DNA of 36,022 nt, from NCBI GenBank assembly GCA_021324675.1, contig JAJPIR010000130.1:1-36022 (forward strand), read 5' to 3'. The notes beneath the pieces were generated by a model, which was not told the origin of the DNA, did not search any database, and saw only the letters and a program-made list of their open reading frames with translations. The DNA is from Actinomycetota bacterium. GTDB lineage: Bacteria > Actinomycetota > Actinomycetes > Mycobacteriales > Pseudonocardiaceae. Numbering within the stretch: position 1 is the first letter of the stretch; each line of letters starts with the position of its first letter. Both the position numbers and the translations under genes were made by a program. Of this stretch, positions 10,347 to 29,080 are shown piece by piece.

Positions 10347-10360
10347 GCTTGCTCAGCCAC
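10339..10360. terminator. Shared terminator containing both convergent stop codons
   Basis: GTGGCTGAGC-TT-GCTCAGCCAC is a perfect 10-base stem with a 2-base loop, followed by CGTTTT on the plus strand. The rsdA stop (10344-10346) lies in the left arm and the DUF5319 stop (10353-10355 on the minus strand) in the right arm, so one hairpin ends both genes. Confidence 0.8.
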
Positions 10361-10742
10361 CGTTTTCGGCAAGCACCGCGTCGGTGTAACCGCGGCAGTA
10401 TTCCCAGCTGACATAGCCCGCGGGGTCCGGATCATAGGCGGGTTCGTGCGGTCGCATCCGGCCGGCTTCGAGCAGTTGCTGCAGGCTGGATCGGAGCAGT
10501 TGCCAGTCGTGATAGTGCTGCTCAGCGCAGTCGGGGCAGTCCACGACGATGCCGCGTATTCCGCGGGGAGCCAGCAGAGCCTGGTAGACGGCCAGATCAC
10601 TCAAGTCAGCGAGCAGGCCAGCTCGCTCGTCGTCATCCAGCGGTTCGTCAATGCCGTCGTCGGCACTGTCCAAAGCTTCCAACGCCAGAGCCGGATCCTC
10701 CGGATCACCGGCGAAGGGGTCGGGGGGAAGTGAGTCGTGCAC
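10353..10742 (-). CDS. DUF5319 family protein
   Basis: A 129-residue cytoplasmic protein matching the actinobacterial DUF5319 family (M. tuberculosis Rv3412 type), always found between sigD/rsdA and guaB. Conserved segments are LPPDPFAGDP, DLSDLAVYQALLAPRGIRGI, a CPDC motif followed by HYHDW, and RPHEPAYDPDPAGYVSWEYC. The Cys pair with nearby His and the later Cys could bind a metal. GTG 10742 starts the conserved part (VHDSLPPDPF); the frame extends upstream to 10817, but that would cross the guaB promoter. Function is unknown. Confidence 0.88.
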   Translation of the reverse strand: MHDSLPPDPFAGDPEDPALALEALDSADDGIDEPLDDDERAGLLADLSDLAVYQALLAPRGIRGIVVDCPDCAEQHYHDWQLLRSSLQQLLEAGRMRPHEPAYDPDPAGYVSWEYCRGYTDAVLAENGG

Positions 10743-10751
10743 CACGGCTGA

Positions 10752-12335
<1,584 letters not shown>

Positions 12336-12336
12336 G

Positions 12337-13464: not shown

Positions 13465-13476
13465 CCCCCCTTACCT

Positions 13477-13504
13477 CACCCCGCACCCCGCACCCCGCAC
13501 CCCG
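13477..13504. repeat. Tandem heptamer, four copies of CACCCCG
   Basis: Four exact head-to-tail copies of CACCCCG directly abut the first base of the long palindrome at 13504. It is a candidate variable-number tandem repeat. It lies 12 bases after the guaB3 stop, in non-coding DNA. Confidence 0.9.
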
Positions 13505-13565
13505 CAGTCTGGATGCAGACTGCTGTTTCGGAGGGCTCAAAAACAGCAGTCTGCATCCAGACTGC
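13504..13565. repeat. Nested palindromic repeat, copy 1
   Basis: A 25-base perfect inverted repeat (13504-13528 with 13541-13565) has a 12-base loop. Each arm begins with its own hairpin, GCAGTCT-6 bases-AGACTGC, followed inward by TGTTT, so read from either side it looks like an intrinsic terminator. The same element recurs at 17540 and 31097. The loop suggests that copy 1 is inverted relative to the other two. It sits between guaB3 and guaA. Confidence 0.95.
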
Positions 13566-13622
13566 TGTCGGAGACCCGGCGGCTAGCGCGCGGGGTGACG
13601 ATCACTGGCGGCCACAGTTGCC

Positions 13623-13634
13623 TACGCTGGCACT
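13623..13634 (+). promoter_or_regulatory. -10 element of a leaderless guaA transcript
   Basis: TACGCT (13623-13628) lies six bases before the guaA ATG, with no ribosome site, as at guaB. A TGACGA at 13596-13601 is a possible but distant -35 (21-base spacing). Confidence 0.45.
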
Positions 13635-15206
13635 ATGTCCCCACCCGGTCCGCTCGTGCTGGTCATCGACTTCGGCGCGCAGTATGCGCAGCTGATCGCC
13701 CGCCGGATCCGCGAGGCCCAGGTGTATTCCGAGGTGGTCGGGCACAAGACACATGCTTCGGAGATCCTGGGCCGTAAACCCGCGGCGATCGTGCTGTCCG
13801 GGGGCCCGGCCAGCGTGTACGAGCCAGGGGCGCCCCGCGTTGACCCGGCGCTGTTCGGCGCCGGGTTGCCGGTACTGGGCATCTGCTACGGATTTCAAGC
13901 GATGGCCGACGCGCTGGGCGGCGCCGTGCAACGAACCGGCACCCGTGAGTACGGGCGCACCGACCTCCAGGTGCTCGAAGGCGGCGGTGTCCTTCACCGA
14001 GAGCTACCAGCTCGCAGTCCAGTCTGGATGAGCCATGGCGATGCTGTCACGGCCGCTCCGGACGGGTTTGCCGTCACCGCACGGTCGCCGGGTTCCCCGG
14101 TGGCTGCATTCGAGAGCATCGATCGGAAGCTGGCAGGGGTGCAGTACCACCCCGAGGTGGTGCACTCGCCGCACGGCCAGGAAGTGCTGCGCCGGTTCCT
14201 GCACGAAGTCGCCGGTATCCGGCCGAGCTGGACCACCGCGAATGTGATCGAGGAAACGGTCAGCGCGATCCAAGTCCGCACGCAAGGTGGCCGGCTGATC
14301 TGCGGGCTTTCCGGCGGGGTGGACTCCGCGGTCGCCGCCGCGCTGGTGCATCGAGCCGTCGGGGACGCCCTGACTTGCGTGTTCGTTGATCACGGCTTGC
14401 TGCGCGCGGGTGAGCGAGCGCAAGTGGAAAAGGATTACGTGGCGGCCACCGGGGTCAAACTGGTCACTGTCGACGCGCGAGACCGGTTCCTTTCTGCGCT
14501 GGCAGGGCTCACCGATCCCGAGCAGAAGCGGAAGATCATCGGCCGGGAATTCATCAGGGTCTTCGAAGCCGCCGCGCGCGACATTGCCGCCGATGCGGGA
14601 CGGCATGGTCAGCAGATCCGGTTCCTGGTCCAGGGCACGCTGTATCCCGACGTGGTGGAATCCGGTGGCGGATCCGGCGCCGCGAACATCAAAAGTCACC
14701 ACAACGTCGGCGGCTTGCCTGAGGATCTCAGCTTCGAGCTGGTCGAGCCGCTGCGTGCGCTATTCAAGGACGAGGTACGCCGGGTAGGGCTGGAACTGGG
14801 ACTGCCGGAGACCATTGTGCACCGCCAGCCGTTCCCGGGCCCGGGCCTCGCAATCCGCATTATTGGCGAGGTGACGGCTGCACGTCTGGAAACGTTGCGC
14901 GCCGCGGACGCGATCGCGCGCGAGGAACTCACCGCTGCCGGGATGGACCGCGACATCTGGCAGTGCCCGGTCGTGTTGCTCGCTGACGTCCGTAGCGTCG
15001 GAGTGCAGGGCGACGGGCGAACCTACGGTCATCCCGTCGTGCTGCGGCCGGTATCGAGCGAGGACGCGATGACCGCGGACTGGTCGAGGGTGCCCTACGA
15101 CGTGCTGGCCCGGATCTCTGGCCGGATCACCAATGAAGTACCTGAGGTGAACCGGGTGGTGCTCGACGTGACCAGCAAGCCCCCCGGCACCATCGAATGG
15201 GAATGA
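13635..15206 (+). CDS. guaA: GMP synthase (glutamine-hydrolysing)
   Basis: Converts XMP to GMP using ATP and glutamine. It is 523 residues long, the usual size. The class I glutamine amidotransferase domain (about 1-200) has the nucleophile C84 in GICYGFQAM and the His/Glu pair in [12 protein letters not shown]. The ATP-pyrophosphatase P-loop is [20 protein letters not shown]. The dimerisation domain holds [16 protein letters not shown] and ends KPPGTIEWE, all conserved. It stands alone after the repeat, with a probable leaderless promoter. Confidence 0.98.
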
Positions 15207-15232
15207 TGCCGGTGACCCAGGACAGACACGAA

Positions 15233-15248
15233 GTGAGCGCTAGCTCAC
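15233..15248. other. Short inverted repeat after guaA
   Basis: GTGAGC-GCTA-GCTCAC (6-base arms, 4-base loop) begins 27 bases past the guaA stop. It could be a weak terminator or an operator for the next gene; nothing else is recognised between 15207 and 15356. Confidence 0.35.
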
Positions 15249-15356
15249 AGCGCCACTGACCGCAGCGGCGTATCACACCGTTTCAAGGCCACCTCTGTCT
15301 CAGTGCATGGTTTAGGCGGGGGCCCGGTTTACGTGGGACGGAGGTGGCGAAAGGTC

Positions 15357-15761
15357 ATGGAATCTACGATCAATGCTCCGATCGACGCGGCGGCAGCGGC
15401 GCTGGCCACCGCCGCTGCGTTGCCGATGACAGCCAGCAGTGAGGAGACTGTGGCGCTGGTCCGCGATCTGGCACGGATCGCCTGCCACCTCGGTGAGCTC
15501 ACCGCAGCGGTCCGCGATCGCTGGGCGGCGTGGGGCACGGTGACCCCGCACCTGCAGCGCGCTGAGGCGCTCGCCGCCGACGCGACCCGATGCCTCAGCC
15601 ACGCCGCTGGCATCTATGTTTTCAACAGCACCCAGCCCCTTACCGAGCAGCGTGCGGCCAGTCCCGAGCGCATCGCGTACGTCACCCGTGGTCGGCGCCC
15701 AGCGACGTCAACCACACCGGTGGAGGTGGGACATGGCCTGCCCCGTCGCCTCGACCGTTGA
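15357..15761 (+). CDS. Hypothetical helical protein
   Basis: A 134-residue protein of unknown function. It is alanine-rich and mostly alpha-helical for residues 1-95, with heptad-like patterns in VALVRDLARIACHLGELTAA and LQRAEALAADATRCLSHAAG, then an Arg/Pro/Thr-rich disordered tail. There is no signal peptide or membrane segment. ATG 15357 is preceded by GACGGAGG and AAAGG; the open frame from 15303 is probably leader. It opens the accessory block after guaA, 267 bases before the MetF-like gene, on the same strand. High third-position GC supports coding. Confidence 0.7.
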   Translation: MESTINAPIDAAAAALATAAALPMTASSEETVALVRDLARIACHLGELTAAVRDRWAAWGTVTPHLQRAEALAADATRCLSHAAGIYVFNSTQPLTEQRAASPERIAYVTRGRRPATSTTPVEVGHGLPRRLDR

Positions 15762-15823
15762 CCCACATAGCACGAAGGCGTACGCCTAGCCGCTTGTCCT
15801 CCCGAGCCATCGGTTCGAAGTGG

Positions 15824-15873
15824 GACCTAGGTCTTCACCCGTGCGAGGCAGGCCCATCACAGGTCTTAGACCT
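15824..15873. promoter_or_regulatory. Two related palindromes upstream of the MetF-like gene
   Basis: GACCTAGGTC (15824-15833, perfect) and AGGTCT-T-AGACCT (15861-15873) share the half-site AGGTC/GACCT and lie about 160-200 bases before the methyl-cycle genes. They could be operators for a transcription factor. The rest of 15762-16028 shows no gene, and I could not match it to SAM-I, SAM-II, SAM-IV, SAH or cobalamin riboswitch cores. Confidence 0.35.
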
Positions 15874-16028
15874 CCTGGTTACCGGCGGCGGCAACCTCGA
15901 CGGCGCAGTAGACAGATCAATACCATGACATTCTCTCGACGCAGCGGGCGCGGCGGAGCGCGGTCTGTGGTCCTCCGAGCCGTCGCGGTAGCAGGCGTTG
16001 CCGTCGCCGAGTGGTTAGGAGCAACGTC

Positions 16029-16922
16029 GTGACCCTCAACACCATCGCGCTCGAGCTCGTCCCGCCGAACGTGGAGCATGGTCCCCAGCGTGCCGTCGAG
16101 GAGGCGCACAAGGTTCTCGAGCTGGCCGAGCAGTTCGGCATCGACGGCCGGATCGGTCATGTGATGATCCCCGGACTGATCCACGAAGATGACGATCGGC
16201 CGGTCGAAATGAAGCCGAAACTCGATGTGCTGGAATTCTGGGCGGCCATCCAACCGGAATTGCCCGGGGTAAACGGGCTGTGTACCCAGGTCACCGCCTT
16301 CATGGACGAGTCAGCGTTACGTGCGCGGCTCACCAATCTGCGCAATGCCGCCATCGAGGGCATCATCTTCGTCGGCGTCCCGCGCACCATGAACGATGGT
16401 GAGGGCTGCGGTGTCGCACCAACCGACGCGCTGTCGCTCTACGACAACCTGGTGGAGAACCGGGGTGTGATCCTCATCCCCACCCGGGACAGCGAGCAGC
16501 GCCGGTTCGCGTTCAAGTGCGACCAGGGCGCCACCTTCGCTATGACTCAGTTGCTGTATTCCGACGCGATTGCCGGTTTTTTGGCTGATTTCGCGGCACA
16601 CACTGCGCACCGGCCGGAAATCTTGCTGTCATTTGGATTCGTTCCGAAATTCGAAAGCAAGGTCGGCCTGATCAGTTGGCTGATCCAGGACCCGGGCAAT
16701 GATGTTGTCGCCGAGGAGCAGGCAGTGGTCGCCAGGCTGGCGGACAGTGGGCCGGACCAGAAGCGCAAGCTCATGCTGGATTTGTACAAGCGGGTGATTG
16801 ACGGGGTGGCCGATCTCGGTTTCCCGCTGAGCGTCCACTTGGAGGCTCCGTACGGGGTCTCGGCGCCCGCGTTCGAGACCTTCACCGAGATGCTCGCGTA
16901 TTGGGCTCCTAACAAAAGCTGA
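16029..16922 (+). CDS. MetF-like methylenetetrahydrofolate reductase homologue
   Basis: A 297-residue protein with the fold features of 5,10-methylenetetrahydrofolate reductase, which supplies the methyl group for methionine synthesis. IALELVPPN keeps the catalytic glutamate (E9) three residues before the proline pair, as in the FEFFPP motif of MetF. GATFAMTQLLYSD corresponds to the conserved substrate/FAD segment. The usual TARDR and VTGDPP motifs are replaced by divergent sequence (GIIFVGVPRTMN), so it belongs to a distant subfamily. The GTG at 16029 has AGGAG eight bases upstream; an in-frame ATG exists at 16011. It leads the methyl-cycle block, though 1.1 kb of small or decayed genes follow before the core operon. 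The electron donor is not readable from sequence. Confidence 0.75.
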   Translation: MTLNTIALELVPPNVEHGPQRAVEEAHKVLELAEQFGIDGRIGHVMIPGLIHEDDDRPVEMKPKLDVLEFWAAIQPELPGVNGLCTQVTAFMDESALRARLTNLRNAAIEGIIFVGVPRTMNDGEGCGVAPTDALSLYDNLVENRGVILIPTRDSEQRRFAFKCDQGATFAMTQLLYSDAIAGFLADFAAHTAHRPEILLSFGFVPKFESKVGLISWLIQDPGNDVVAEEQAVVARLADSGPDQKRKLMLDLYKRVIDGVADLGFPLSVHLEAPYGVSAPAFETFTEMLAYWAPNKS

Positions 16923-16982
16923 CAGAACTGACGCGGTCGAGAGCATGGTCGCTGTTCTGTGCCCGCGGCATGGTGCACGTTG

Positions 16983-17335
16983 CCGCGTGAGGTCACCGAG
17001 CGTGGCGCGGCGTTCGCGGCTCGCGCGGTGGACCGATCCGTGTTGCGCGAACTGGCAGCTGAGCGGCCCAGCAGATCCTGTGGGCCTTCGCGTCCATGGC
17101 TGGGTAGACCAGCAGCAGGCTGAAGCCTTCAGGATCGGTACTGCGCAGCTGCGGTCACGGTCCCGCAGGGGCGCACCGTCCATGATGTGTCGCCACGGTG
17201 CTCGTTCGACATGCGCGCGGCGTGGCCGGGTGCGAACATCGACAAAGCGGGCGTATTCGTGCATACGGCCCAGCACGGTATGCGCCCGCCTAGCCGCAGC
17301 AACGCGTGTCGTCCCCACGGCATGCCGCCGGGTTG
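16983..17335 (+). pseudogene. Possible decayed gene with frame switches
   Basis: No intact gene is found between 16923 and 17351. Stretches with coding-like third-position GC occur successively in different frames: EVTERGAAFAARAVDRSVLR from about 16989, then AAQQILWAFASMAG to a stop near 17105, then WVDQQQAEAFRIGTAQL. Last comes VTVPQGRTVHDVSPRCSFDM, with its frame open to a TGA near 17335. This pattern suggests one gene broken by several small insertions or deletions. I do not recognise the parent family. Confidence 0.28.
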
Positions 17336-17351
17336 ACCGAGGAGACCGCCC

Positions 17352-17528
17352 ATGTTCGCCATCATCGCCGCCATCCTGTTCGCCATCGCGCTGATACTCG
17401 CTTTGGCCGGATTTGCGCTCGGTCCGCTCGACGTCATCACCTTCATCTCGGCTGGCTTGCTATGCCTTGCCCTGCATCTCGCTGGGATCGGAGCTGGCAC
17501 CCGGACCTGGCGCCGCAGCCGCGTCTAA
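17352..17528 (+). CDS. Small two-helix membrane protein
   Basis: A 58-residue protein starting with ATG 17352, with GAGGAG nine bases upstream. Residues 1-24 (MFAIIAAILFAIALILALAG) and about 28-48 (VITFISAGLLCLALHLAGI) are hydrophobic helices, and the C terminus is basic (RTWRRSRV). Small membrane proteins of this kind are common in actinomycetes and their roles are mostly unknown. It ends 11 bases before copy 2 of the nested palindrome. Confidence 0.72.
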   Translation: MFAIIAAILFAIALILALAGFALGPLDVITFISAGLLCLALHLAGIGAGTRTWRRSRV

Positions 17529-17539
17529 CCACACCTGCA

Positions 17540-17605
17540 CCGCAGTCTGGATGCAGACTGCGGTTTTTCAGGCTCGGAAAACAGCAGTCTGCATCCAGAC
17601 TGCGG
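17540..17605. repeat. Nested palindromic repeat, copy 2
   Basis: A 28-base inverted repeat with one mismatch (17540-17567 with 17578-17605), 10-base loop. The arm sequence is the same as copies 1 and 3, with the inner hairpin GCAGTCT-6 bases-AGACTGC followed by GGTTTTT on the plus strand and TGTTTT on the minus strand. It follows the small membrane protein and precedes the zinc-ribbon gene. Confidence 0.95.
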
Positions 17606-17752
17606 AGAGAACTCCGCGAGTTGTGGTCGAGGCACAAATGCACGCCGCGTGATTTCGTGTTCGAACCCGGTTGTTGCGGACCCTGGGGGCCCCTTTCACT
17701 AACGGTGTGGTTTGCCTCACAGGAGAGGCTCCCGCGGCGTCAGGAGGGTGCC

Positions 17753-17971
17753 ATGGCGCACGAGGTGAACTGCCCGCATTGCGGATGCCCTTTGGTCGCC
17801 ACCCAGGACAACGTCCGGGTGCCCGAGGTCGATGACGTCGAGATACTTCACCGGGAAATCGAGCACCTCCGCGCCACGGTCGCGCGGTTGCGCGGGTCTG
17901 GCTTCGACCCGCTGCAGCGGATGCCTGTGACAAATCCGGCAGCATCCTGGCCGGCTCCCCGCATTCCGTGA
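17753..17971 (+). CDS. Small zinc-ribbon protein of the methyl-cycle operon
   Basis: A 72-residue protein with a strong ribosome site AGGAGG (17742-17747) before ATG 17753. The N terminus VNCPHCGCPL is a CxxCxC zinc-knuckle-like motif. Residues about 28-48 (DVEILHREIEHLRATVARLR) form an amphipathic, possibly coiled-coil helix, and the tail is proline-rich. No second Cys pair is present, so a metal site would need dimerisation or a partner. It ends 54 bases before the 500-residue methyltransferase-fold gene and is likely its co-transcribed neighbour. The 147 bases upstream (17606-17752) hold no recognised element. Confidence 0.72.
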   Translation: MAHEVNCPHCGCPLVATQDNVRVPEVDDVEILHREIEHLRATVARLRGSGFDPLQRMPVTNPAASWPAPRIP

Positions 17972-18025
17972 CGACGCGGGCACGGGCGAAAGCGCTGACA
18001 GTGATGACTAGGGAAGGCAGCGGCA

Positions 18026-19528
18026 GTGCTGGTTGATTTCCGTCCCACCGGCAAGCTTCGGGGCAGCAAGCGCGTGGACGCGACCGCCTCTCTGGCCCCG
18101 GTGCTGGACGCGCTGGCCGAAGACTCGCTGGACCTGTCGCGGGTCCGCGTGGTGTGCGACTGGGTGCAGTACCGCAACAACTTTCGCGATGTCGTCGATC
18201 TCCGGCCGATCCTGGCTGCTCACGGTCACGAGTCCGAGGTGCTGCCGGTGGCGCTGTCAGCGGTGATGACCGAGGACGAGATGGAGGTCGCCATTGACGT
18301 AAGGCGCAGCGGTGACGTGCCACTCAAGGAGCTGACCTGCGATCTCATCCGGGCCCGCGCCGCCGGCACCAATCCTTCCCGAATCTACCTGGAACCATGG
18401 CGAGCCACCCGCAAGAGCATGATCTGGGACTTCAATGCGCTGTACTGGAAGGCTCTCGACGTATGGGAACAGGTCACCGGCCAGCAGTACGAGAAAACCC
18501 TGCCGGGAGGGGAAAGCGATGCTCGCAACCGTGACGCGGTACGCGAGATTATCACCGCTCTTCTCATTCTCTGGGATTCGCTGGCCGAGCGAAATGCGCT
18601 GCCCGACGAGCTGTATGTGGTTGAGCTAGGTCCCGGTAATGGGAGCCAGGCGAAAACTTGGCTGGACGAGTTCGTCGCCTTGGACCAGGCCCACGGCAAG
18701 GAGTATTACCGGCGGCTGCACTATCTGATGTGTGACTACTCTCCGCATGTTCTGGAAGTCGCCCGGGCCGCGGTCGCCGACCACGCGCAGCACGTCAGCT
18801 CTTTCGTGCTGGATGCTACGCAGCCGCGCACCGCGCTGGGTTTCCTGACTTATAAAATCTTCCTGGTCTACATCTCCAATGTCTATGACAACCTGCCCAC
18901 CGATGAGGTAGCGCAGATCGGCGGTCGTACGTATACCGTGGAGAGCCGGGCCTACCTACCTGCCAGCGCCGTCGCGGATATCGCGCAGCTGGTATCGGCT
19001 CAACCGGATCAAGTACCGGGATTGATCGGTAAATTGCTGCGGCTGCAGCCGGCCTTGCTTGTGGATGCGCTACCGGCGCACTTCCCGTCAATCGAAGTGG
19101 CGGTGGAATTCTGGCGCCGTAGCTGGGCGGAATTACGCCTGGAAGAGCGGTACCTGCCGCTGGCAGGGCTCGATCTCTACCAGATCGCACCGACCGTCAG
19201 CGGGGAGAACCTGCGGCCGTTGCTGGAGTCCGGCGCCGCGATCCGGATGCACGTCAACAACGGTGCGGTAGCCAGCTTTGTGGACACTCTGCCGCTGCTG
19301 CATCCCTTCGGTCGGCTGATTTGCTACGATCTTTTCGTCACCGACATCCATGCCTACCGGACCGGGTTCCGCGGCCCAGGAAAATACGACGGCTCCGTGG
19401 TAAACTGGCTCAACGGTCCGCTGCTGGCGCATATCGGACGCCGCAGAGGTTTCGATGTTGATTTCCAACGTTTTACGCACCGGACCGGCACGAACATCGT
19501 CACGATGACAGCCCAAGTAAGGGACTGA
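18026..19528 (+). CDS. Unrecognised SAM-methyltransferase-fold protein in methyl-cycle operon
   Basis: A 500-residue cytoplasmic protein. A class I SAM-binding signature lies in the middle: motif I is VVELGPGNGS (199-208), the motif II acidic segment is LMCDYSP (234-240), and then come SFVLDATQP (259-267) and ISNVYDNLP. The overall pattern recalls the MidA/NDUFAF7 family of protein arginine methyltransferases, but residues 1-190 are unlike that family as I know it. They include DFRPTGKLRG, RVVCDWVQYRNN and YLEPWRATRKSMIWDFNALY. The C-terminal third has LICYDLFVTDIHAYRTGFRG. GTG 18026 follows AGGGAAGG. The gene ends one base before the MetE-like gene. Context suggests a role in methyl transfer to or from methionine synthesis; the reaction is unknown. 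Confidence 0.7.
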   Translation: MLVDFRPTGKLRGSKRVDATASLAPVLDALAEDSLDLSRVRVVCDWVQYRNNFRDVVDLRPILAAHGHESEVLPVALSAVMTEDEMEVAIDVRRSGDVPLKELTCDLIRARAAGTNPSRIYLEPWRATRKSMIWDFNALYWKALDVWEQVTGQQYEKTLPGGESDARNRDAVREIITALLILWDSLAERNALPDELYVVELGPGNGSQAKTWLDEFVALDQAHGKEYYRRLHYLMCDYSPHVLEVARAAVADHAQHVSSFVLDATQPRTALGFLTYKIFLVYISNVYDNLPTDEVAQIGGRTYTVESRAYLPASAVADIAQLVSAQPDQVPGLIGKLLRLQPALLVDALPAHFPSIEVAVEFWRRSWAELRLEERYLPLAGLDLYQIAPTVSGENLRPLLESGAAIRMHVNNGAVASFVDTLPLLHPFGRLICYDLFVTDIHAYRTGFRGPGKYDGSVVNWLNGPLLAHIGRRRGFDVDFQRFTHRTGTNIVTMTAQVRD

Positions 19529-19529
19529 T

Positions 19530-20585
19530 ATGCTGCCAGTGCTACCCACCACGGTAGTGGGGTCGTATTCGGTTCCAGAGTGGCTTGAGCGGTTGAAAAC
19601 AGACTATTACCGCAACAGGATCAGCCGGAGCCATCTCGGTGAAATTCACGATATGGCGATAAAGGCGGCGCTCAAGGACCAAGAGGCCGCAGGTATCGAT
19701 ATCGTCTCCGACGGGGAATTGCGGCGCGACAACGACATCGACTACCTGCTGGCCCGGATAACCGGCGTGCACATTCCAGTTACCGTCAAGTCATTCTACT
19801 TCGACTACTACGACTCTCCGATGGTCGCTGAGCCGTTGCCGGTCGACCCGCCGCCACCGCTGGGCCTGGCGGAGGACTTCCGCTTCACCAGGGTGCATAC
19901 GGATCGTCCGATCAAATTCAGCTTCACCGGGCCGTTTTCGCTGTCCCGCCGGATACAGAACAAGGCGTATTCCAAACCGGCCGATCTGGTGCGAGCGCTG
20001 GCGCAGGTGCTCAACGCTGAGGCCCGGGCGCTGGCCGACGCCGGTGCTGATCTCCTGCAGATCGATGAACCCTTCCTGGCCGGGTACCCCGAAGACGTGG
20101 GTGTGGCGGTCGAAGCGATCAACATCGTGACTCGTGATGTCAACGTCACCTGGGGGCTGCACGTCTGCTACGGCAATCGCTACGCGCGGCCGTCGTGGGA
20201 GGGCCATTATGACTTCCTGTTCCCCGCGGTGCTCGACGCCAACGTAAACCAGCTCGTCCTGGAGTTCGGTCGCAAAGGCTACGAGGACCTTCCCATCATC
20301 CAACAGCTGGGATGGGACCGCGCGCTCGGACTCGGCGTGGTAGATGTCAAGACCGAGCTGATCGAATCCGCGGAACTCATCGCGGCGCGCATCCGCAAGG
20401 CGCTCGAAACGTTCCCGGCCGAGAAGCTGACTATCAATCCGGACTGCGGGCTGCGTCACCTGCCCGCCGATGTGGCCAGAGCAAAGCTGGTGGCGATGGT
20501 AGAAGGAACTCTCGCGGTTCGCCGAACCCTGCCGGAGAGCTCGGGGCTAACCCGGCCGGAACTGACCGTCGAGCAAGGAGCGTGA
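19530..20585 (+). CDS. Short MetE-like methionine synthase (catalytic domain only)
   Basis: A 351-residue cobalamin-independent methionine synthase-like protein, about half the length of normal MetE (about 750), lacking the N-terminal folate-binding half. The zinc and homocysteine site is complete: H211 and C213 in [10 protein letters not shown]245 in [10 protein letters not shown]306 in [11 protein letters not shown], plus QIDEP at 178-182. N-terminal GSYSVPEWL and [13 protein letters not shown] are typical of the domain. Families of such short core-MetE proteins are known to work without folate, taking methyl groups from a corrinoid protein or needing an extra partner. ATG 19530 follows the preceding stop by one base, and metK starts four bases after its stop, so these are tightly co-transcribed. 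Confidence 0.88.
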
Positions 20586-20589
20586 TCGC

Positions 20590-21840
20590 ATGACCCAACT
20601 GGAGTCCGCGGAATTTCTCTTCACGTCAGAATCGGTGACCGAAGGCCATCCGGACAAGATGGCCGACCAGATCTCCGACGCCGTGCTGGATGCGGCGCTG
20701 AAGGTAGACCCGAACTCCCGGGTGGCGTGCGAGACGTTGGTGACCACGGGACTGGTCGTGCTGGCTGGTGAGATCACCACCACGGCAATGCTCGACTACA
20801 CCCAAATCGTGCGGGAGACCATTTGCCGGATCGGCTACGACAACGGCAGCTTCGGCTTCGACGGCCACTGCTGCGGGGTGATGATCGCGCTGGACAAGCA
20901 GTCGCCGGAAATTGCACAAGGCGTCGATATGGCCCTCGAGCGACGCGGGGAGCTGTCTGAGGACGAGCTGGACAGCGCCGGCGCCGGCGATCAGGGGATG
21001 ATGTTCGGGTACGCCACCAATGAGACCGCTGAACTCATGCCGATGCCCATCGCGCTGGCGCACCGGCTGTCCAAGCGGCTGTCGACGGTCCGCAAGGACG
21101 GCACGCTGCCCTATCTGCGGCCCGACGGTAAAACCCAGGTCACCGTCCGGTACCGGGACGGGGTACCCGTCGGAGTGGAGAAGGTGCTGATCTCCACCCA
21201 GCACGCTGAGGACGTCACCTCCGAGCAGATCCGGGATGATCTGTGGGAGCACGTGGTGCTGGCAGTATTGCCCGCCGGCTTCTATGACGAGGCCAGGTTG
21301 GCGCGCAACTGGTACGTCAACCCGACCGGCCGGTTCGTCATCGGCGGGCCGGTGGGTGATGCTGGCCTGACCGGTCGGAAGATCATCGTGGATACCTATG
21401 GTGGGTTCGCCCGGCACGGTGGCGGTGCGTTCTCCGGCAAGGACCCATCCAAAGTGGACCGTTCTGCGGCGTATGCGAGCCGTTACGTGGCCAAGAACAT
21501 CGTCGCCGCCGGCCTGGCCGACCGCGCCGAAGTGCAGGTGGCGTACGCGATCGGTGTCGCCCGGCCGCTGTCGTTGCTGGTCGAGACGTTCAACACGGAG
21601 AAGGTGCCGCGCCGGACCATCGAGAAGCTGGTGGGCGAGCATTTCGATTTGCGCCCGGCGGCATTCCGGAACTACCTGCGGTTGCACCGGCCCATCTACG
21701 CTAAGACCGCCGCCTACGGTCACTTCGGGCGCGACGATCCCGACTTCACCTGGGAGCGCACCGACAAGGCGGCGGAATTGCGCGAGGCCGCCGGGTTGCC
21801 AGCCAGCGTCGAGCCGGTAGTGGCCTCTGGACAGGCATGA
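20590..21840 (+). CDS. metK: S-adenosylmethionine synthetase
   Basis: Makes S-adenosylmethionine from methionine and ATP. The 416-residue length is slightly above the 380-405 norm. The signature motifs are intact: [36 protein letters not shown] and [23 protein letters not shown] 20590 follows AAGGAG four bases after the MetE-like stop. The gene order MetE-like, metK, adoK, ahcY places all enzymes of the activated methyl cycle in one transcript. The genome may carry a second metK elsewhere; that cannot be judged here. Confidence 0.97.
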
Positions 21841-21852
21841 GAGGGGGAGCGC

Positions 21853-22830
21853 GTGCGCATCATCGTCACGGGGTCGATCGCCACCGATCACCTGATGGTT
21901 TATCGGGGCCGATTTACCGAGCAGATCGTGCCGGAAGCACTCGACAGCATCTCGGTGTCGTTCCTGGTGGAGGATCTGGCGATCCACCGCGGCGGGGCGG
22001 GTGCGAACATCGCGTTCAACCTGGGCTGCCTGGGGTTGGCGCCGGTGCTGGTGGGTGCAGTCGGTGCCGATTTCGCCGAGTACGGGCAGTGGCTGTCGGA
22101 GCACGGGGTAGACGTCAGCGCGGTGCACGTGTCGCAGACCAAGCACACTGCCCGGTTTTTGTGCACCACTGATTCTGACTCCAACCAGATCGCCTCGTTC
22201 TATCCCGGTGCGATGAGCGAGTCCCGCGATATCGAGCTCAAGCCGATCGTCGACCGCTTCGGCGGCACCGATCTCGTCCTGATCGGGCCTAATGATCCGG
22301 CGGCGATGTTGCGGCACACCCAGGAGTGCCGGGATCTCGGATACCCGTTCGCCGCGGACCCTTCCCAGCAGCTCGCCAGCCTGGAAGGGGATCAGATCGC
22401 CGAGCTGGTTGAGGGTGCGGCGTACCTGTTCACCAACACCTACGAGCGCGGCCTGCTCGAACGTAAGACCGGCTGGGGCAACGAAGACGTCCTCCAGCGC
22501 GTGGGTGTGTCAGTGATGACCCGCGGCGCCAAGGGCGTGACCGTGCAACGACCGGGCGAACCGGATGTCTCCGTGACGCCGCCACAGGAGTTGCAGAAGG
22601 CGGACCCCACCGGGGTCGGTGACGCATTCCGGGCTGGCTTCCTGGCCGGGGTCGAGTGGGGGGTCAGTGACGAGCGGGCTGCCCAACTCGGCTGCATGCT
22701 GGCCACCTTGGTGATCGAGTCAGTGGGTACCCAGGAACACCAGTACCAACCAGAGGCGTTTCTGCACCGGTTCAGCGAAGCCTACGGACCCGACAGCGCG
22801 GCCGAGGTGGCTGACCACCTACGTGCGTGA
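21853..22830 (+). CDS. adoK: Adenosine kinase (PfkB family)
   Basis: A 325-residue ribokinase-fold enzyme closely resembling mycobacterial Ado[21 protein letters not shown] at the N terminus, [35 protein letters not shown] and [16 protein letters not shown]. The catalytic signature is [16 protein letters not shown], with the base aspartate in GVGD. It phosphorylates adenosine to AMP, removing the adenosine released by AhcY and so pulling SAH hydrolysis forward. GTG 21853 follows GAGGGGGAG. It ends by GTGA overlap with an alternative start of ahcY. Confidence 0.93.
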
Positions 22831-22871
22831 CCGCCAACGTCGACTCAAGACCCGACAGGGAGTGCATTTCG

Positions 22872-24350
22872 ATGACTGTGGCGCCTGCCGCCGAGAACAA
22901 GCTACAAAGCCGTAACGGGATTGATTTCGCAGTCGCCGACCTGGGCCTGGCCGATTTCGGTCGTAACGAGATCCGGTTGGCCCAGCATGAGATGCCCGGT
23001 TTGATGGCGTTGCGCCGGGAGTATGCGGATGTTTTCCCGTTGCGCGGAGCGCGGATTTCCGGGTCACTGCACATGACGGTGCAGACGGCCGTGCTGATCG
23101 AGACGCTGGTCAGCCTGGGCGCCGAGGTGCGGTGGGCGTCCTGCAACATCTTCTCCACGCAGGACCATGCCGCGGCAGCGGTGGTGGTGGGACCGCACGG
23201 GTCCGCGGAGCAGCCCCAGGGCGTACCGATCTTCGCCTGGAAGGGCGAGACGCTGGCAGAGTACTGGTGGTGCATCGAGCAGGCGATGACGTGGCCTGAC
23301 GGGGCAGGGCCCAACATGATCCTCGATGATGGCGGGGACGCCACCCTGATGGTGCACAAAGGGGTGGCTTACGAGAAGGCTGGCGTGGTGCCCGCCGTAG
23401 ACGACAACGACTCCGATGAGTGGAAGGCATTCCTGGACGTCCTGCGGGCCTCGCTGGCCACTGCGCCGGGCAAGTGGACGGCGATCGGGGAGGGAATCCG
23501 CGGGGTCAGCGAGGAGACCACCACCGGAGTGCACCGGTTGTACCAGCTGGCCGCGGCAGGAGAGCTGCTGTTCCCGGCGATGAACGTGAATGACTCGGTA
23601 ACCAAGTCGAAGTTCGACAACAAGTACGGATGCCGCCATTCGCTGGTCGACGGGATCAACCGGGCAGTCGACGTGCTGCTGGCCGGGAAATTGGCGGTGG
23701 TCTGCGGATACGGGGATGTGGGCAAGGGATGCGCAGAGGCCCTGAGCGCCCAGGGTGCTCGGGTGGTGGTGACCGAGGTTGACCCTATCTGCGCGCTGCA
23801 GGCCATGATGAACGGGTTTTCGGTGGACACCCTCGACAACCTGGTCGAGCGCGCGGATGTCATCATCACCGCTACCGGCAACAAGGACATCGTCACCGTC
23901 GACCACATGGCGCGGATGAAGCACCAGGCGATCCTGGGCAATATCGGGCACTTCGATAATGAGATCGACATGGCCGGGCTGGAACGCCGGTCGGGTGCCC
24001 GCCGGTTGAACATCAAGCCGCAGGTCGACGAGTGGGTTTTCCCGGATGGGCACTCGATCATCCTGCTTTCCGAGGGACGGCTGCTGAACCTGGGCAACGC
24101 CACCGGGCACCCCAGCTTCGTGATGTCGAACTCGTTCTCCAACCAGGTGATCGCCCAGATCGAGCTGTTCACCAAGCACCAGGAATACGATCGCGAGGTC
24201 TACGTCCTGCCCAAGGCGCTCGATGAGAAGGTCGCCCGGATTCACGTCGAGGCGCTGGGCGGCCAGCTCACCAAGCTGACCAAAGACCAGGCCGAGTACA
24301 TCGGCGTTGACGTCGAGGGCCCGTACAAGCCGGACCACTACCGCTACTGA
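22872..24350 (+). CDS. ahcY: S-adenosylhomocysteine hydrolase
   Basis: NAD-dependent hydrolysis of S-adenosylhomocysteine to adenosine and homocysteine, relieving product inhibition of methyltransferases. Conserved segments are [52 protein letters not shown], the NAD loop [16 protein letters not shown] and the C-terminal KPDHYRY. The long mycobacterial-type insert is present (492 residues). ATG 22872 has AGGGAG about ten bases upstream; a GTG at 22827 that overlaps adoK would add 15 residues. It ends the operon, followed by a strong hairpin. Confidence 0.97.
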
Positions 24351-24370
24351 CCGCGCTGCCGCAGCATGAT

Positions 24371-24421
24371 CGGTTTTGGTGTCGTCAACGACACGCCGTG
24401 TCGTCGTAGGCACCAAAACCG
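24371..24421. terminator. Two-tier hairpin between convergent ahcY and lipoprotein genes
   Basis: The outer stem CGGTTTTGGTG with CACCAAAACCG (11 bases, perfect) and the inner stem ACGACAC-gcc-GTGTCGT are separated by a six-by-six internal loop. An alternative hairpin GTGTCGT-CA-ACGACAC can form in the left half. It ends 21 bases before the lipoprotein stop, so it can serve both strands as a terminator. Confidence 0.8.
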
Positions 24422-24442
24422 TGACCTTCAGGGAAGAGCGGA

Positions 24443-25036
24443 TCAACTTGGCGGTACGTGGCACTCCGGGGCCTGGTCGATGGCGGCGCGTAGTTGTGGA
24501 TCGCTGGTGAGAGTGCCGAACAAGCCCACGACGTTGCCGATCGCACCGAAAGCCTGCGCGATCGCGGCACCGTCGTTGGCGTTGGCCGCATTGATCCGGG
24601 TTGCCATCTCCTTGAGGTTGCCACGCAGTTGGGTGAGCCGGGCCCGCATCTGGTCCATCCTGCGCTCGCCGTCACTCACCGGTGGCGCGCCGATCGACGG
24701 CAGAAAGTCGATCGCCTGCTGCGTGGCCTTCTCCGCGTTGCTCAGGTAGGTGCTCAAGGCCTGTCGCGTCGCCGCCGGGTCAGCGAAGTCAGGCTCGGGT
24801 GGCATGCCGACCTGGAGGAAGGCAAACCCCAACACCTGGCACATCGACTTGGCCCAGCTGCCAACGGTCGGCTGTGGACGCGGTGGAGGCAAGCTTGTCG
24901 CCGGCTGTGATGGCGTCGTCGACGCCGTGGCCGGCGCGTTTCTGGTGTGATCGGCGCAGGCCGCCACGGTGATCGCCGTGGTGACGGCGACCACAGCCAG
25001 CGGGCGGCGCAGCCTCGCGCCTGGTAAAACGTTCAT
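24443..25036 (-). CDS. Putative lipoprotein, paralogue A
   Basis: A 197-residue protein with a lipoprotein signal: basic MNVLPGARLRRPLAVVAVTT, hydrophobic core, and lipobox VAAC with the lipidated cysteine near residue 27. A Pro/Thr-rich linker (about 30-57) follows, then a helical domain with SWAKSMCQVLG, DPAATRQALSTYLSNAEKAT, the turn LPSIGAPPVSDG, and the tail DPQLRAAIDQAPECHVPPS. The two mature cysteines (SMC and ECH) may form a disulfide bond. It is clearly paralogous to the gene upstream at 25131-25772. It is likely anchored on the outer face of the membrane; function unknown. Confidence 0.82.
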   Translation of the reverse strand: MNVLPGARLRRPLAVVAVTTAITVAACADHTRNAPATASTTPSQPATSLPPPRPQPTVGSWAKSMCQVLGFAFLQVGMPPEPDFADPAATRQALSTYLSNAEKATQQAIDFLPSIGAPPVSDGERRMDQMRARLTQLRGNLKEMATRINAANANDGAAIAQAFGAIGNVVGLFGTLTSDPQLRAAIDQAPECHVPPS

Positions 25037-25896: not shown

Positions 25897-27093
25897 CTAG
25901 TGGTCGGCGGGAAGCGGAATCTTCAGGCGTACCACGGTGCCGCGGCCGGGAGTGCTGTCGGCGGTGAGCTGCCCGCCCAGGAGTTCGGCGCGCTGCTGCA
26001 TGCCCGGCATGCCGTAGCCGACAGGCCCGGCACGCTCGGGCGTGTTGGCCGGATCGAAGCCGACACCGTCGTCGGAGATCTCCAGCAACACGGCACCGGT
26101 GGCAATCGACAGGCGCAGCTGGACGTGCGCCGCGCTGGCGTGCTTCATCACGTTCTGCAGCGCCTCTTGGGCGATCCGGTAGACGGCAGTCTCGACGTGC
26201 TCGGGCAGCACGGTGCTCACGGTATCCACGTGGACGTTGGGCAGCGGCGTTGACCGCGCGAGACTTTCCAGGCTCGCGGCCAGCCCGAGATCGTCGAGCA
26301 CCGGTGGGCGCAGCCCGGCGATCGCGGTGCGCGTCTCGTCCAGGGCTCCAGCGGCGAGTTCCTGCGCGCGGGCGATCTGCTCGGCAGCGCTGGCCGGATC
26401 GGAACTGACTGCATCCGCCGCCGCGGACAGGTGAAACGACAAGCTGACGATGCGCTGGCTGATCCCGTCGTGGATCTCACCGGCGAGCCGGCGGCGCTCG
26501 GTTTCCTGAAGCAGCACGATCTGCTCGGCGAAGCGTTCCATCGCCGCCTCCCGTTCGGCGAGCCTGCTGTGCAGGCGGGCGTTCTCGATTGCGCCAGCCA
26601 TCAGACCAGCCACTGAGCTGAGCAGGTCGACGTCAGCCTCGGTGAAGTCGCGGCGATCCCGGGTGTGCACGTTGAGCACCCCGACCAGGTCGCCAGGCCT
26701 CGTGATCATCGGGACAGAGGCCATCGAGATGAACTCCTCACCTCGCAGCTCCGGGATGTATCGATAGCGCGGGTCATCCCGCTTGTTGTCAGTGATGACG
26801 ACGGGCTGGCAGTGCGCGGCGACCCAGCCGGAGATCCCCTCGCCGATCGGCAGCTCGATGCGCCGGGCCAGCCGGTCGAACGGCGGTGTGGCACCCCGCA
26901 GGTGTAGCCGGTCGCCGGCCGGATCCAGCAGGTGCACGAAGCAGACGTCGGTGGACGTGGTCTCGGTGATCAAGTCGGCCACACCCTGGGCGATCCCATC
27001 CAGGTCCAGCCCGGCTGACAAAATCTCGATCACACCGTGCAGCAACCGGGCATCGGAATCGGCGTTGGCCAAGCCCACCGGCGGACGGATCAC
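25897..27093 (-). CDS. GAF-domain sensor histidine kinase
   Basis: A 398-residue soluble kinase. Residues about 17-170 form a GAF domain (IGEGISGWVAAHCQPVVITD, DLVGVLNVHTRDRRDFTEAD). The HisKA_3 dimerisation helix has the phosphoacceptor H208 in LAGEIHDGISQRIVSLSFHL. The ATPase domain has EALQNVMKHASAAHVQLRLS, DDGVGFDP and YGMPGMQQRAELLGG. There is no membrane segment, so it senses a cytoplasmic signal bound to GAF, or a redox/ligand cue. The start GTG overlaps the response regulator stop (GTGA), so the two are coupled. No GAF-bound cofactor can be inferred from sequence alone. Confidence 0.93.
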   Translation of the reverse strand: MIRPPVGLANADSDARLLHGVIEILSAGLDLDGIAQGVADLITETTSTDVCFVHLLDPAGDRLHLRGATPPFDRLARRIELPIGEGISGWVAAHCQPVVITDNKRDDPRYRYIPELRGEEFISMASVPMITRPGDLVGVLNVHTRDRRDFTEADVDLLSSVAGLMAGAIENARLHSRLAEREAAMERFAEQIVLLQETERRRLAGEIHDGISQRIVSLSFHLSAAADAVSSDPASAAEQIARAQELAAGALDETRTAIAGLRPPVLDDLGLAASLESLARSTPLPNVHVDTVSTVLPEHVETAVYRIAQEALQNVMKHASAAHVQLRLSIATGAVLLEISDDGVGFDPANTPERAGPVGYGMPGMQQRAELLGGQLTADSTPGRGTVVRLKIPLPADH

Positions 27094-27755
27094 TGGAACA
27101 CTCCCTCGCGCAGCGCGGCGGCGACCGCGCCGGACCGGTCCGCGACGTCAAGCTTGCGGTAGATGCCGCGGGCGTGTGTCTTGACGGTTTCCTCGCTGAC
27201 GGTGAGCCGGCCGGCGATGGCACGGTTGGACAGCCCGGCCACCATCAGGCCGAGCACCTCGCTCTCCCGCTGGGTCAGGCCGAGCCGAGCGCCCGGCCAG
27301 AACTCGTCGCCGCGCAGGTGCGCCACCGACATCGCGACCTTGGCGGCGAGGCTGGGATCGATGAGTACTTCACCCTGGTGGATCCGCTGCAGATGATCCA
27401 CCAGCTCCGCGCCGCGGACCCGCTTGAGCAGGAACCCGGACGCGCCCAGGCGCAGCGCCTGGTAGAGGTACTGCTCGTCGTCGTAGACGGTCAGGAACAC
27501 GACCTTGCAGGCTGGTTGCCGCTTGCGGATTTCCGCGCAGAGGTCAAGCCCGCTGGAGCCACGGAGCCGCACGTCGAGCAGGATGATATCCGGCTCCAGC
27601 AGGGTGATGGCTTTCAGTGCGAGGTCTGGTTCGGTGGCCTCTGCCAGGATCTGGACCTGTTCGGAGTAGGCGGCCAGCATCGCACGCAGGCCATCGAGCA
27701 CCATCTGGTGGTCATCGACGATGACGACCCGAACCGGGCCCGTTGCCCTGCTCAT
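27090..27755 (-). CDS. NarL-family response regulator
   Basis: A 221-residue regulator partnered with the GAF kinase. The receiver domain has the acidic pair D14-D15, phosphoacceptor D61 in IILLDVRLRG, T89 in FLTVYD and K111 in FLLKRV, all intact. The LuxR-type DNA-binding domain is LTQRESEVLGLMVAGLSNRA followed by VSEETVKTHARGIYRKLDV. It is transcribed ahead of the kinase. Nearby targets could include the lipoprotein genes or the TetR gene, but no operator was identified. Confidence 0.94.
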   Translation of the reverse strand: MSRATGPVRVVIVDDHQMVLDGLRAMLAAYSEQVQILAEATEPDLALKAITLLEPDIILLDVRLRGSSGLDLCAEIRKRQPACKVVFLTVYDDEQYLYQALRLGASGFLLKRVRGAELVDHLQRIHQGEVLIDPSLAAKVAMSVAHLRGDEFWPGARLGLTQRESEVLGLMVAGLSNRAIAGRLTVSEETVKTHARGIYRKLDVADRSGAVAAALREGVFQ

Positions 27756-28191: not shown

Positions 28192-28239
28192 GTCGTTAGT
28201 GTCGTTTTCTCAGTGAGCACGTGGGTACCCCTAGTAGCC

Positions 28240-28267
28240 TTGGATGGGGCCCGCCCGTTGATACACT
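28240..28267 (+). promoter_or_regulatory. Promoter of the TetR gene
   Basis: TTGGAT (28240-28245), 16-base spacer, TACACT (28262-28267), 31 bases before the GTG at 28299. TTGA-TACACTAGG-TCAA overlaps the -10 and could be a repressor site. Confidence 0.5.
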
Positions 28268-28298
28268 AGGTCAATTTTTCTTTCACGATTGGTTGGTA

Positions 28299-28946
28299 GT
28301 GCGTCCGAAACCTCCACGTAAACCTGCCGAAGAAGCAGTGGAATCCGCCGACGTTGTCGCTGTTGTCAGCGCCGACACGGAAAGCGGCCGCGAGCGAGTC
28401 ATGCGGGCGGCGTATGACCTATTCAGCCGGCTTGGCACCCGCACCGTCGGGGTCGACGCGGTGATCGGCGAGGCCGGCGTGGCCAAGATGACGCTGTACC
28501 GCAACTTCGCCTCCAAAGATGACCTGATCTTGGCCTTCCTGGAGCGCCGGGAGACGCAGTGGACCCATGGTTGGGTGCGGGCCGAATCCCAGCGCCGTGG
28601 TGACACGCCGGCCCGGCGCCTGCTGGCCATCTTCGAGCTGTTCGGTGAGTGGTTCGCCCGGTCGGATTTCGAAGGTTGTTCCTTCATCACCACGCTGCTC
28701 GAAGTGACCACCCGGGACAGCGCGGTGCGGCAGGCCTGTGTCAGGCACCTGGCCAACATTCGCAGCTACCTGTGCGAGCTCGCGACCGAAGCGGGCGTGG
28801 CGGATCCCGATGCGTTCGCCCGCCAGTGGCACATCCTGATGAAAGGATCCATCGTCGCCGCGGCTGAGGGCGACACCCAGGCTGCAGCACGCGCTCGGGA
28901 ACTCGGCCTGCTACTGCTCAAAGAGCACGGAATCGCCCCTGATTAA
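28299..28946 (+). CDS. TetR-family transcriptional regulator
   Basis: A 215-residue regulator. After a 25-residue acidic, flexible N terminus comes the TetR helix-turn-helix: RVMRAAYDLFSRLGTRTVGV and GEAGVAKMTLYRNFASKDDL. The ligand-binding half has FGEWFARSDFEGCSFITTLL and a helical C terminus ending LKEHGIAPD. GTG 28299 places the protein after a good promoter; an in-frame ATG at 28221 lies upstream of that promoter and is unlikely. It is divergent from the antiporter remnant, which may once have been its target. The inducer is unknown. Confidence 0.9.
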   Translation: MRPKPPRKPAEEAVESADVVAVVSADTESGRERVMRAAYDLFSRLGTRTVGVDAVIGEAGVAKMTLYRNFASKDDLILAFLERRETQWTHGWVRAESQRRGDTPARRLLAIFELFGEWFARSDFEGCSFITTLLEVTTRDSAVRQACVRHLANIRSYLCELATEAGVADPDAFARQWHILMKGSIVAAAEGDTQAAARARELGLLLLKEHGIAPD

Positions 28947-29080
28947 CTAGTGCCGCCGCCCAACTCCACCACGTCGAAGTGGGCAGCTCTCCCGCCTTGC
29001 CGCTCATCCGGCATTGGAGCGCTGATTGCTGGTTTCAGCAGGCGGTCGGGGTGGACAATTCGGGGTCGGGAGGCGAAGCA

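What the first reader, a model, noticed from the sequence alone, without database searches (positions are those of the whole stretch)
17753..24350. Methyl-cycle operon built around a short, catalytic-domain-only MetE
Zinc-ribbon protein, a 500-residue SAM-fold protein, short MetE, metK, adoK and ahcY run head to tail with small gaps (1 to 54 bases), with a MetF-like gene upstream. The short MetE keeps all zinc ligands (H211, C213, E245, C306) but lacks the folate-binding half. Known short MetE families act without folate, taking the methyl from a corrinoid protein or needing an accessory protein. Here a full S-adenosylmethionine regeneration cycle is packaged with two genes of unknown function, which suggests a self-contained, possibly new methionine synthase system.
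Basis: partly seen in the sequence, partly recalled or inferred. Interest (0 to 1): 0.75.

Follow-up and report, generated by a model that had tools for sequence, protein, structure and literature searches.

The report
Methyl-cycle operon with MidA-like methyltransferase
A rare actinobacterial gene cluster pairs a shortened methionine synthase with an uncharacterised methyltransferase and enzymes of the folate and S-adenosylmethionine cycles, and may be a vitamin-B12-free route for moving methyl groups onto folate and burning them.

Summary
The 351-residue MetE is the catalytic half only; its zinc and homocysteine residues are invariant in 40 of 40 aligned rows and it forms its own clade (100/99; MesA-C not included). 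The 500-residue neighbour ('MT500') is its real partner: in loci found by MT500 alone, 34 of 36 have this MetE directly downstream. The zinc-ribbon gene is lineage-specific. A self-contained methionine synthase is not supported: 46 of 48 host genomes carry a MetH domain, and MT500 is scarce (2 of 396 phylum genomes; 37 of 250 in one family). Relatives mostly read metV-metF-MT500-MetE, often with metK, kinase, purU or FTHFS. That MetF is 43-45% identical to MetF of four corrinoid demethylation clusters, 24% to E. coli MetF; two loci keep metF-MT500 without MetE. MT500 models as a class I SAM methyltransferase, closest overall to MidA. Best reading, inferred: a methyl-oxidation cycle in which homocysteine and SAM carry the methyl group and MT500 passes it to tetrahydrofolate. 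Rivals: SAM recycling for an unknown MT500 substrate; a two-protein methionine synthase.

The parts
16011..16922 (+). MTHFR_2: mycobacterial-type methylenetetrahydrofolate reductase; possible stand-in for the MetV-MetF pair of relatives; probably its own transcription unit
   Evidence: PF19345 519 bits; relatives have metV-metF between the zinc-ribbon gene and MT500, window, L007 and L058 do not
17540..17605 (.). 28-nt inverted repeat, 96% complementary, 10-nt loop, between MTHFR_2 and the operon; terminator-like or repeat element
17753..17971 (+). small zinc-ribbon protein (72 aa), conserved only in the window's lineage and a few relatives, where it precedes metV
   Evidence: 'zinc ribbon' read from the CPHC motif, no convincing PHROG match
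18026..19528 (+). MT500: class I SAM-dependent methyltransferase fold, closest overall to MidA, with an N-terminal extension of about 120 residues; the constant partner of this MetE
19530..20585 (+). short MetE, catalytic domain only; zinc and homocysteine residues invariant; own clade
20590..21840 (+). metK, methionine adenosyltransferase; the genome's only other match is in the second operon copy
21853..22830 (+). PfkB-family kinase, adenosine kinase by context
   Evidence: a homologue is present at 27 of 36 long loci
22827..24350 (+). ahcY, adenosylhomocysteinase
   Evidence: TIGR00936 627 bits
28979..30967 (+). YitJ-like fusion: homocysteine S-methyltransferase plus MTHFR; membership in the system uncertain, but such genes sit at 15 of 36 long related loci
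   Evidence: PF02574 and PF02219

Best explanation
The locus is a methyl-handling module in which homocysteine and SAM, rather than a corrinoid protein, carry methyl groups to tetrahydrofolate. Proposed steps: (1) short MetE (and YitJ where present) puts a methyl group from a still unknown donor on homocysteine, giving methionine; (2) MetK makes SAM; (3) MT500, a MidA-like SAM methyltransferase, passes the methyl to N5 of tetrahydrofolate, giving methyl-THF and SAH; (4) AhcY and the kinase return SAH to homocysteine and AMP; (5) MetV-MetF (or MTHFR_2, or an F420-type LLM enzyme at some loci) oxidises methyl-THF; (6) PurU or formate-THF ligase releases formate. Shown here: gene identities, MT500-MetE linkage, MT500 fold (by model), type of MetVF in relatives, no locus with both PurU and FTHFS. 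Inferred: THF as MT500's acceptor, the direction of flow, MetE's methyl donor. In the window's own lineage metV-metF is gone and no purU or FTHFS homologue was found in the window, so there the module is reduced.
Against: No enzyme assay; no SAM:THF methyltransferase of this fold is known to me. MT500's genomic partner is MetE (34 of 36) at least as much as MetF (28 of 36), which a direct MT500-MetE partnership would explain more simply. The route costs ATP at MetK and the kinase. No donor for MetE is identified. The window, L007 and the second copy lack metV-metF, and no purU or FTHFS homologue was found in them; in this genome the only metK matches are in the two operons, which looks like housekeeping use. 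Several other loci also lack metV-metF (28 of 36 have it). MetF enzymes can run either way, and the MetF tree was poorly resolved. Of 36 plasmid records with a MetV match, 24 are Acinetobacter; the one such context I viewed is not a corrinoid cluster. In the VIA list TmtA, Coq5 and GtmA tie with MidA in Z, over about 200 residues instead of 288, so the fold alone does not pick an acceptor.
Confidence: 0.36

Rival explanations
1. Dedicated SAM-regeneration operon. MT500 methylates an unknown acceptor in bulk; AhcY, kinase, MetE, MetK and MetVF rebuild SAM around it. MetE here uses folate-derived methyl groups by an unknown arrangement.
For: A set of AhcY, adenosine kinase, MTHFR, methionine synthase and MetK beside a SAM-consuming methyltransferase has a published precedent in Denitratisoma oestradiolicum, where these genes lie near emtABCD and regenerate SAM for estrogen methylation (PMC7448270, abstract and passages). 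MT500 has a conserved SAM motif and a class I methyltransferase fold. ABC-transporter-like genes flank several loci (names read from the sequences, no family search).
Against: PurU drains one-carbon units, the wrong direction for SAM supply (22 of 46 MT500 loci), although FTHFS (4 loci) would fit; MetVF is of the demethylation-cluster type; G883 and G839 keep metF-MT500 without MetE; MetE lacks the folate half and no separate PF08267 match is in this genome.
Confidence: 0.28
2. Two-protein methionine synthase: MT500 is an obligate helper of this MetE, as MesX is of MesD or the folate-binding half is of split MetE, delivering a methyl group from methyl-THF or another donor.
For: MT500 directly upstream of MetE at 34 of 36 MT500-found loci with gaps of -1 to 40 nt in the 38 loci where both frames are complete; MesX-MesD and the two split-MetE halves show the same helper-first order; metF beside it would supply methyl-THF.
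Against: Two genomes have metF-MT500 but no MetE of this clade, one on a 5.9-Mb contig; MT500 is a SAM-type methyltransferase fold, and SAM is itself made from methionine; 46 of 48 hosts have a MetH domain; PurU is unexplained.
Confidence: 0.22
3. Ordinary short MetE acting alone, in a loosely clustered methionine-cycle region with no shared mechanism.
For: All parts except MT500 and the zinc-ribbon gene are standard methionine-cycle enzymes.
Against: Linkage with MT500 and MetVF recurs across actinobacterial families in a scarce, scattered locus.
Confidence: 0.07

Closest known systems
MesD with MesX (Price et al. 2021, PMC7857596, Results and first part of Methods read)
   Same: Catalytic-domain-only MetE with E at the Glu484 position, partner gene directly upstream (L078, L080), aerobic hosts including Actinobacteria
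   Different: Window MetE is 30-32% identical to MesD, in a separate clade; partner is a MidA-like methyltransferase, not DUF1852
Split MetE (archaeal and actinobacterial catalytic half)
   Same: Closest by identity (36% to Natrinema) and by NCBIfam score (PRK04326, 303 bits, below its cut-off of 406); partner gene directly upstream
   Different: No folate-binding half beside it; genome has no PF08267 match; the tree puts it nearer MesD and other short MetE than split MetE
Corrinoid glycine-betaine/quaternary-amine demethylation clusters (MtgBCD, MttB-like, MetVF, PurU)
   Same: Same MetV-MetF type, and PurU in some; methyl groups to THF and on through one-carbon oxidation
   Different: No corrinoid protein or pterin-binding methyltransferase among the operon genes scanned, though relatives' wider flanks were not all scanned; MT500, MetE, MetK and AhcY instead
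Denitratisoma SAM-regeneration cluster for estrogen methylation (PMC7448270, abstract and passages)
   Same: AhcY, adenosine kinase, MTHFR, methionine synthase and MetK near a SAM-using methyltransferase
   Different: There MetH and a corrinoid methyltransferase; here short MetE and MT500, plus PurU at many loci
MidA / NDUFAF7 (COG1565) protein arginine methyltransferases
   Same: Fold of residues 121-500
   Different: 10-15% identity, extra N-terminal region, metabolic-operon context; no evidence of a protein substrate

Membership tests
MesD core methionine synthase | High similarity to known MesD (Price used 560 bits, about 72% identity) | tested here: not met
   30-32% identity to MesD of Rhodococcus and Acetobacter; separate clade
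MesD core methionine synthase | MesX (DUF1852) beside it | tested here: not met
   None of the ten window proteins scanned, 13635-24749, matched DUF1852; the rest of the genome was not searched for it
Split MetE | Separate folate-binding half (PF08267) | tested here: not met
   0 matches in the 95%-complete draft genome; Price et al. warn that this half is hard to detect
Full-length MetE | Both domains in one chain, TIGR01371 over cut-off | tested here: not met
   107 bits against a cut-off of 930
MesA | Similarity to methanogen MesA; methanogen host; Q at the Glu484 position | tested here: inconclusive
   Relatives are all actinobacterial records and the position is E63, both against; no MesA sequence was at hand for identity; PRK00957, which I recall as MesA, 160 bits below cut-off 258
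MesB and MesC | Similarity to MesB/MesC; Wood-Ljungdahl corrinoid protein in host | not tested
   No reference sequence at hand; acsC/acsD not searched
Zinc/homocysteine chemistry of MetE superfamily | H, C, E, C zinc ligands and S, E, D substrate residues | tested here: met
   Invariant in 40 of 40
MidA / COG1565 methyltransferase | Fold and SAM motif | tested here: met
MidA / COG1565 methyltransferase | Protein arginine methylation | not testable with these tools
   needs an assay
THF-linked demethylation module | MetF of the catabolic MetVF type with PurU or FTHFS | tested here: inconclusive
   Met in many relatives; not met in the window itself, which lacks metV-metF and where no purU or FTHFS homologue was found
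THF-linked demethylation module | An enzyme that makes methyl-THF | not testable with these tools
   MT500 is the candidate; needs an assay

The most novel reading that the evidence does not exclude
MT500 is a SAM:tetrahydrofolate N5-methyltransferase, a new activity for a MidA-type fold, and with a fifth kind of short MetE it forms a corrinoid-free cycle that takes methyl groups from outside donors through methionine and SAM to methyl-THF and formate.
Probability: 0.3. Interest if true: 0.87.

Novelty: new variant of a known kind. Interest (0 to 1): 0.62.

Why it matters
Core MetE proteins are known to differ in where they get their methyl group, and each new clade with its own partner gene is a handle on that question. 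If MT500 methylates THF, aerobic bacteria have a B12-free way to strip methyl groups through SAM, linking methionine metabolism to one-carbon oxidation in reverse of the textbook direction. If instead it is a helper, it is a third way to rescue a MetE without a folate domain. One assay separates the cases.

Tried and rejected
Rejected: zinc-ribbon gene as a core part (10 of 48 loci beside metV or MT500). Rejected: this MetE as the host's main methionine synthase (MetH domain in 46 of 48 genomes; MetE N-domain over cut-off in 20 of 48). Riboswitch regulation: nothing at gathering score in the window and five loci; permissive hits in 15200-18100 were weak or hairpin matches. MT500 on plasmids: no match. 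MT500 in PDB by sequence: no match. The N-terminal 150 residues of MT500 were submitted as a second model but had not finished, so residues 1-120 have no fold assignment here. First MetE tree mixed partial rows and one very long row and was replaced, for which L003, L004, the N-terminal half in L074 and six distant MetE-like rows were left out; it holds 24 of the available MT500-linked MetE rows; MesA, MesB and MesC sequences were not at hand. The epoxyalkane-transferase label of two rows rests on one plasmid context and recall. Literature: in the rows listed by searches I saw no paper on this locus or on SAM:THF methylation; searches had many more hits than were listed, and most subscription journals are not held. 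Reading of papers: PMC7857596 Results, first part of Methods, passages; PMC12478193 abstract, first of two parts of Results, Discussion, passages; PMC7448270 abstract and passages; PMC12366255 and PMC7005905 passages only; other papers only as search listings.
Full report
What is there. Window 17753-24350 holds, on the + strand, a 72-residue zinc-ribbon protein, a 500-residue protein ('MT500'), a 351-residue MetE, metK, a PfkB-family kinase and ahcY. Gaps are 54, 1, 4, 12 and -4 nt. A mycobacterial-type MTHFR (PF19345) ends 830 nt before the zinc-ribbon gene, with a 28-nt inverted repeat between. The short MetE covers PF01717 and lacks the N-terminal half; its zinc ligands H211, C213, E245, C306 and the residues S12, E63, D179, which align with the homocysteine-binding residues given for 3RPD in PMC7857596, are invariant in 40 of 40 aligned rows.

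Host. The window lies in a 5.6-Mb draft of 364 contigs, 95% complete, 3.5% contaminated; the nearest named relatives are Pseudonocardiales metagenome genomes. The genome has no PF08267 match, one MetH activation-domain match, no stand-alone canonical MetF (the two PF02219 matches lie in open frames of 703 and 674 codons, the second being the YitJ-like gene at 28979-30967), and a second copy of the operon on contig C341, about 82% identical to this one in MT500 and MetE. Its only two metK matches lie in the two operons.

Partnership. A search with the MetE protein gave 43 loci. MT500 is directly upstream of MetE in 40 of 43, nearby on the other strand in L042, and missing in L011 (contig starts inside MetE) and L049 (a zinc-ribbon fragment followed by the second half of MetE). 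In the 38 loci with both frames complete the gap is -1 to 40 nt. Because those loci were chosen by MetE, I searched by MT500 alone: 2 of 396 genomes of the phylum (the window's own and G305), 4 of 397 of the order (own included), 37 of 250 of the family of L018's genome. Of 36 loci so found and examined, two of them from the window's own genome, 34 have this MetE directly downstream and 28 have metF directly upstream; 18 of the 37 family genomes were already among the first set, so these counts overlap. For the other 7 of the 37, coordinates put MetE next to MT500 in five (in G847 and G943 MT500 is matched in pieces), none in G839, and G933 has only an MT500 fragment at a contig end. In a whole-genome check of the 19 new MT500-positive genomes of that family and 20 of its 213 MT500-negative ones, the MetE clade (544 bits or more) was in 16 of 19 and 0 of 20; the three without are G883, G839 and G933. 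In the phylum sample the next best matches after the window genome's two copies score 220 bits or less. G305's distant MT500 (39% identity) has no MetE on its 7.3-kb contig.

What kind of MetE. By identity the nearest references are haloarchaeal split MetE (35-36%), then other short MetE (32-35%), an epoxyalkane-transferase-like protein (32%), and MesD (30-32%). In a tree of 53 rows the MT500-linked MetE rows (24) form one group, support 100/99, apart from two MesD, eight split catalytic halves, seven split N-halves, three full MetE, two epoxyalkane-transferase-like and seven other short MetE rows; unlike the identities, the tree joins it to the epoxyalkane-like, MesD and other short MetE rows (100/99) rather than to split MetE. 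MesA, MesB and MesC were not in the tree. So it is a further clade of core MetE with its own partner, as MesD has MesX and split MetE has its folate-binding half; in the examples viewed the partner gene lies directly upstream in all three kinds.

Neighbourhood. In the 36 of 48 loci with more than 2.5 kb upstream and 6.5 kb downstream, a homologue is present somewhere in the locus as follows: metV (PF12225) 28, metF (PF02219) 28, MetE 36, metK 32, kinase 27, purU 20, pucR 18, yitJ 15, ahcY 11, FTHFS 4. purU and FTHFS never occur at the same MT500 locus (22 and 4 of 46, both 0); loci share ancestry, so no probability is given. The zinc-ribbon gene precedes metV in L008, L009, L010, L012, L014, L028 and L060, and precedes MT500 directly in the window, L007 and L058, so the window's lineage probably lost metV-metF; L007 keeps a short MTHFR_2-like stretch. 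At L021 and L037, without metV-metF, a luciferase-like (LLM) oxidoreductase, F420 type by NCBIfam in L037, lies upstream.

Direction of flow. The locus MetF is 43-45% identical to MetF of four proteobacterial corrinoid clusters, about 30-34% to YitJ-type MTHFR and 24% to E. coli MetF. A MetV search hit 36 plasmid records, 24 of them Acinetobacter; I viewed five contexts. Four carry MetV-MetF next to a methyl-THF (pterin-binding) methyltransferase and a corrinoid protein, with MttB-like enzymes in three, betaine transporter genes in one and PurU or a formyl transferase in two; the fifth, Acinetobacter, does not. A further MetF context lies beside FolD and serine-cycle genes; another fetched one, Shinella, is unannotated. 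In Ruegeria, MetF2 is the protein most induced on N-osmolytes and is proposed to oxidise methyl-THF (PMC12478193). MT500 thus sits where those clusters keep the enzyme that makes methyl-THF. G883 (metV-metF-MT500) and G839 (purU-metF-MT500) have no MetE of this clade. This is why I favour methyl transfer from SAM to THF, with MetE feeding methyl groups in through homocysteine. It is an inference from genome context; the acceptor, the direction and MetE's donor are unproven.

Rivals. A similar set of SAM-recycling genes lies near the estrogen methyltransferase of Denitratisoma, where SAM is a bulk methyl donor (PMC7448270); MT500 could likewise serve an unknown acceptor, though PurU then points the wrong way. 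MT500 could be a helper that lets MetE use methyl-THF; the two genomes without MetE and the MetH domain in 46 of 48 hosts speak against it as the only role, while the tight MT500-MetE coupling speaks for it. In the window's own lineage, with metV-metF lost and metK found only in the operons, a housekeeping SAM-cycle role is also possible.

Verdict. Real, conserved and, as far as the listed rows of the searches under Tried and rejected show, uncharacterised; a new clade and partner of a known kind, with a testable and more novel reading.

Noticed in passing
L058 (contig C341 of the same genome), 8731-15378: Second copy of the operon, 76-79% identical DNA, no match to the window beyond it and lower GC (0.62 over 20 kb against 0.67 for the window): a diverged duplicate or a contaminating contig.
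   Followed up: partly
window 17540-17605: 28-nt inverted repeat whose arms are themselves near-palindromic (CCGCAGTCTG...CAGACTGCGG).
   Followed up: no
window 25897-27755 (-) and 28221-30967 (+): Likely GAF histidine kinase (its L008 homologue was scanned) and, unscanned, a likely response regulator; then a TetR regulator directly before a YitJ-like gene.
   Followed up: partly
L036 603-1745, L026 18050-19273, L041 15149-16372, L040 16767-17972, L027, L029, L016, L022: Extra MetE-superfamily proteins of 380-495 aa near MT500 loci (of four scanned with NCBIfam, three score best on PRK06520, one of them over cut-off), possibly further methyl-entry enzymes.
   Followed up: partly
L021, L037 upstream of MT500: LLM oxidoreductase (TIGR03560, F420 type, over cut-off in L037) where metV-metF is absent; a possible stand-in reductase.
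   Followed up: partly
L150 7089-14498 (Acinetobacter plasmid): A 463-codon MetV-domain gene, perhaps a MetF-MetV fusion, with QueH and MesX-MesD plus a flavin reductase on one plasmid stretch.
   Followed up: no
L049 4394-5202: Zinc-ribbon fragment followed by the second half of MetE, without MT500: a deletion or an assembly join.
   Followed up: no
L057 5414-6934: Distant MT500 homologue (39%) beside what read like a GAF-LuxR-type regulator and sugar kinase genes (not scanned), without MetE or MetF matches on its 7.3-kb contig.
   Followed up: partly
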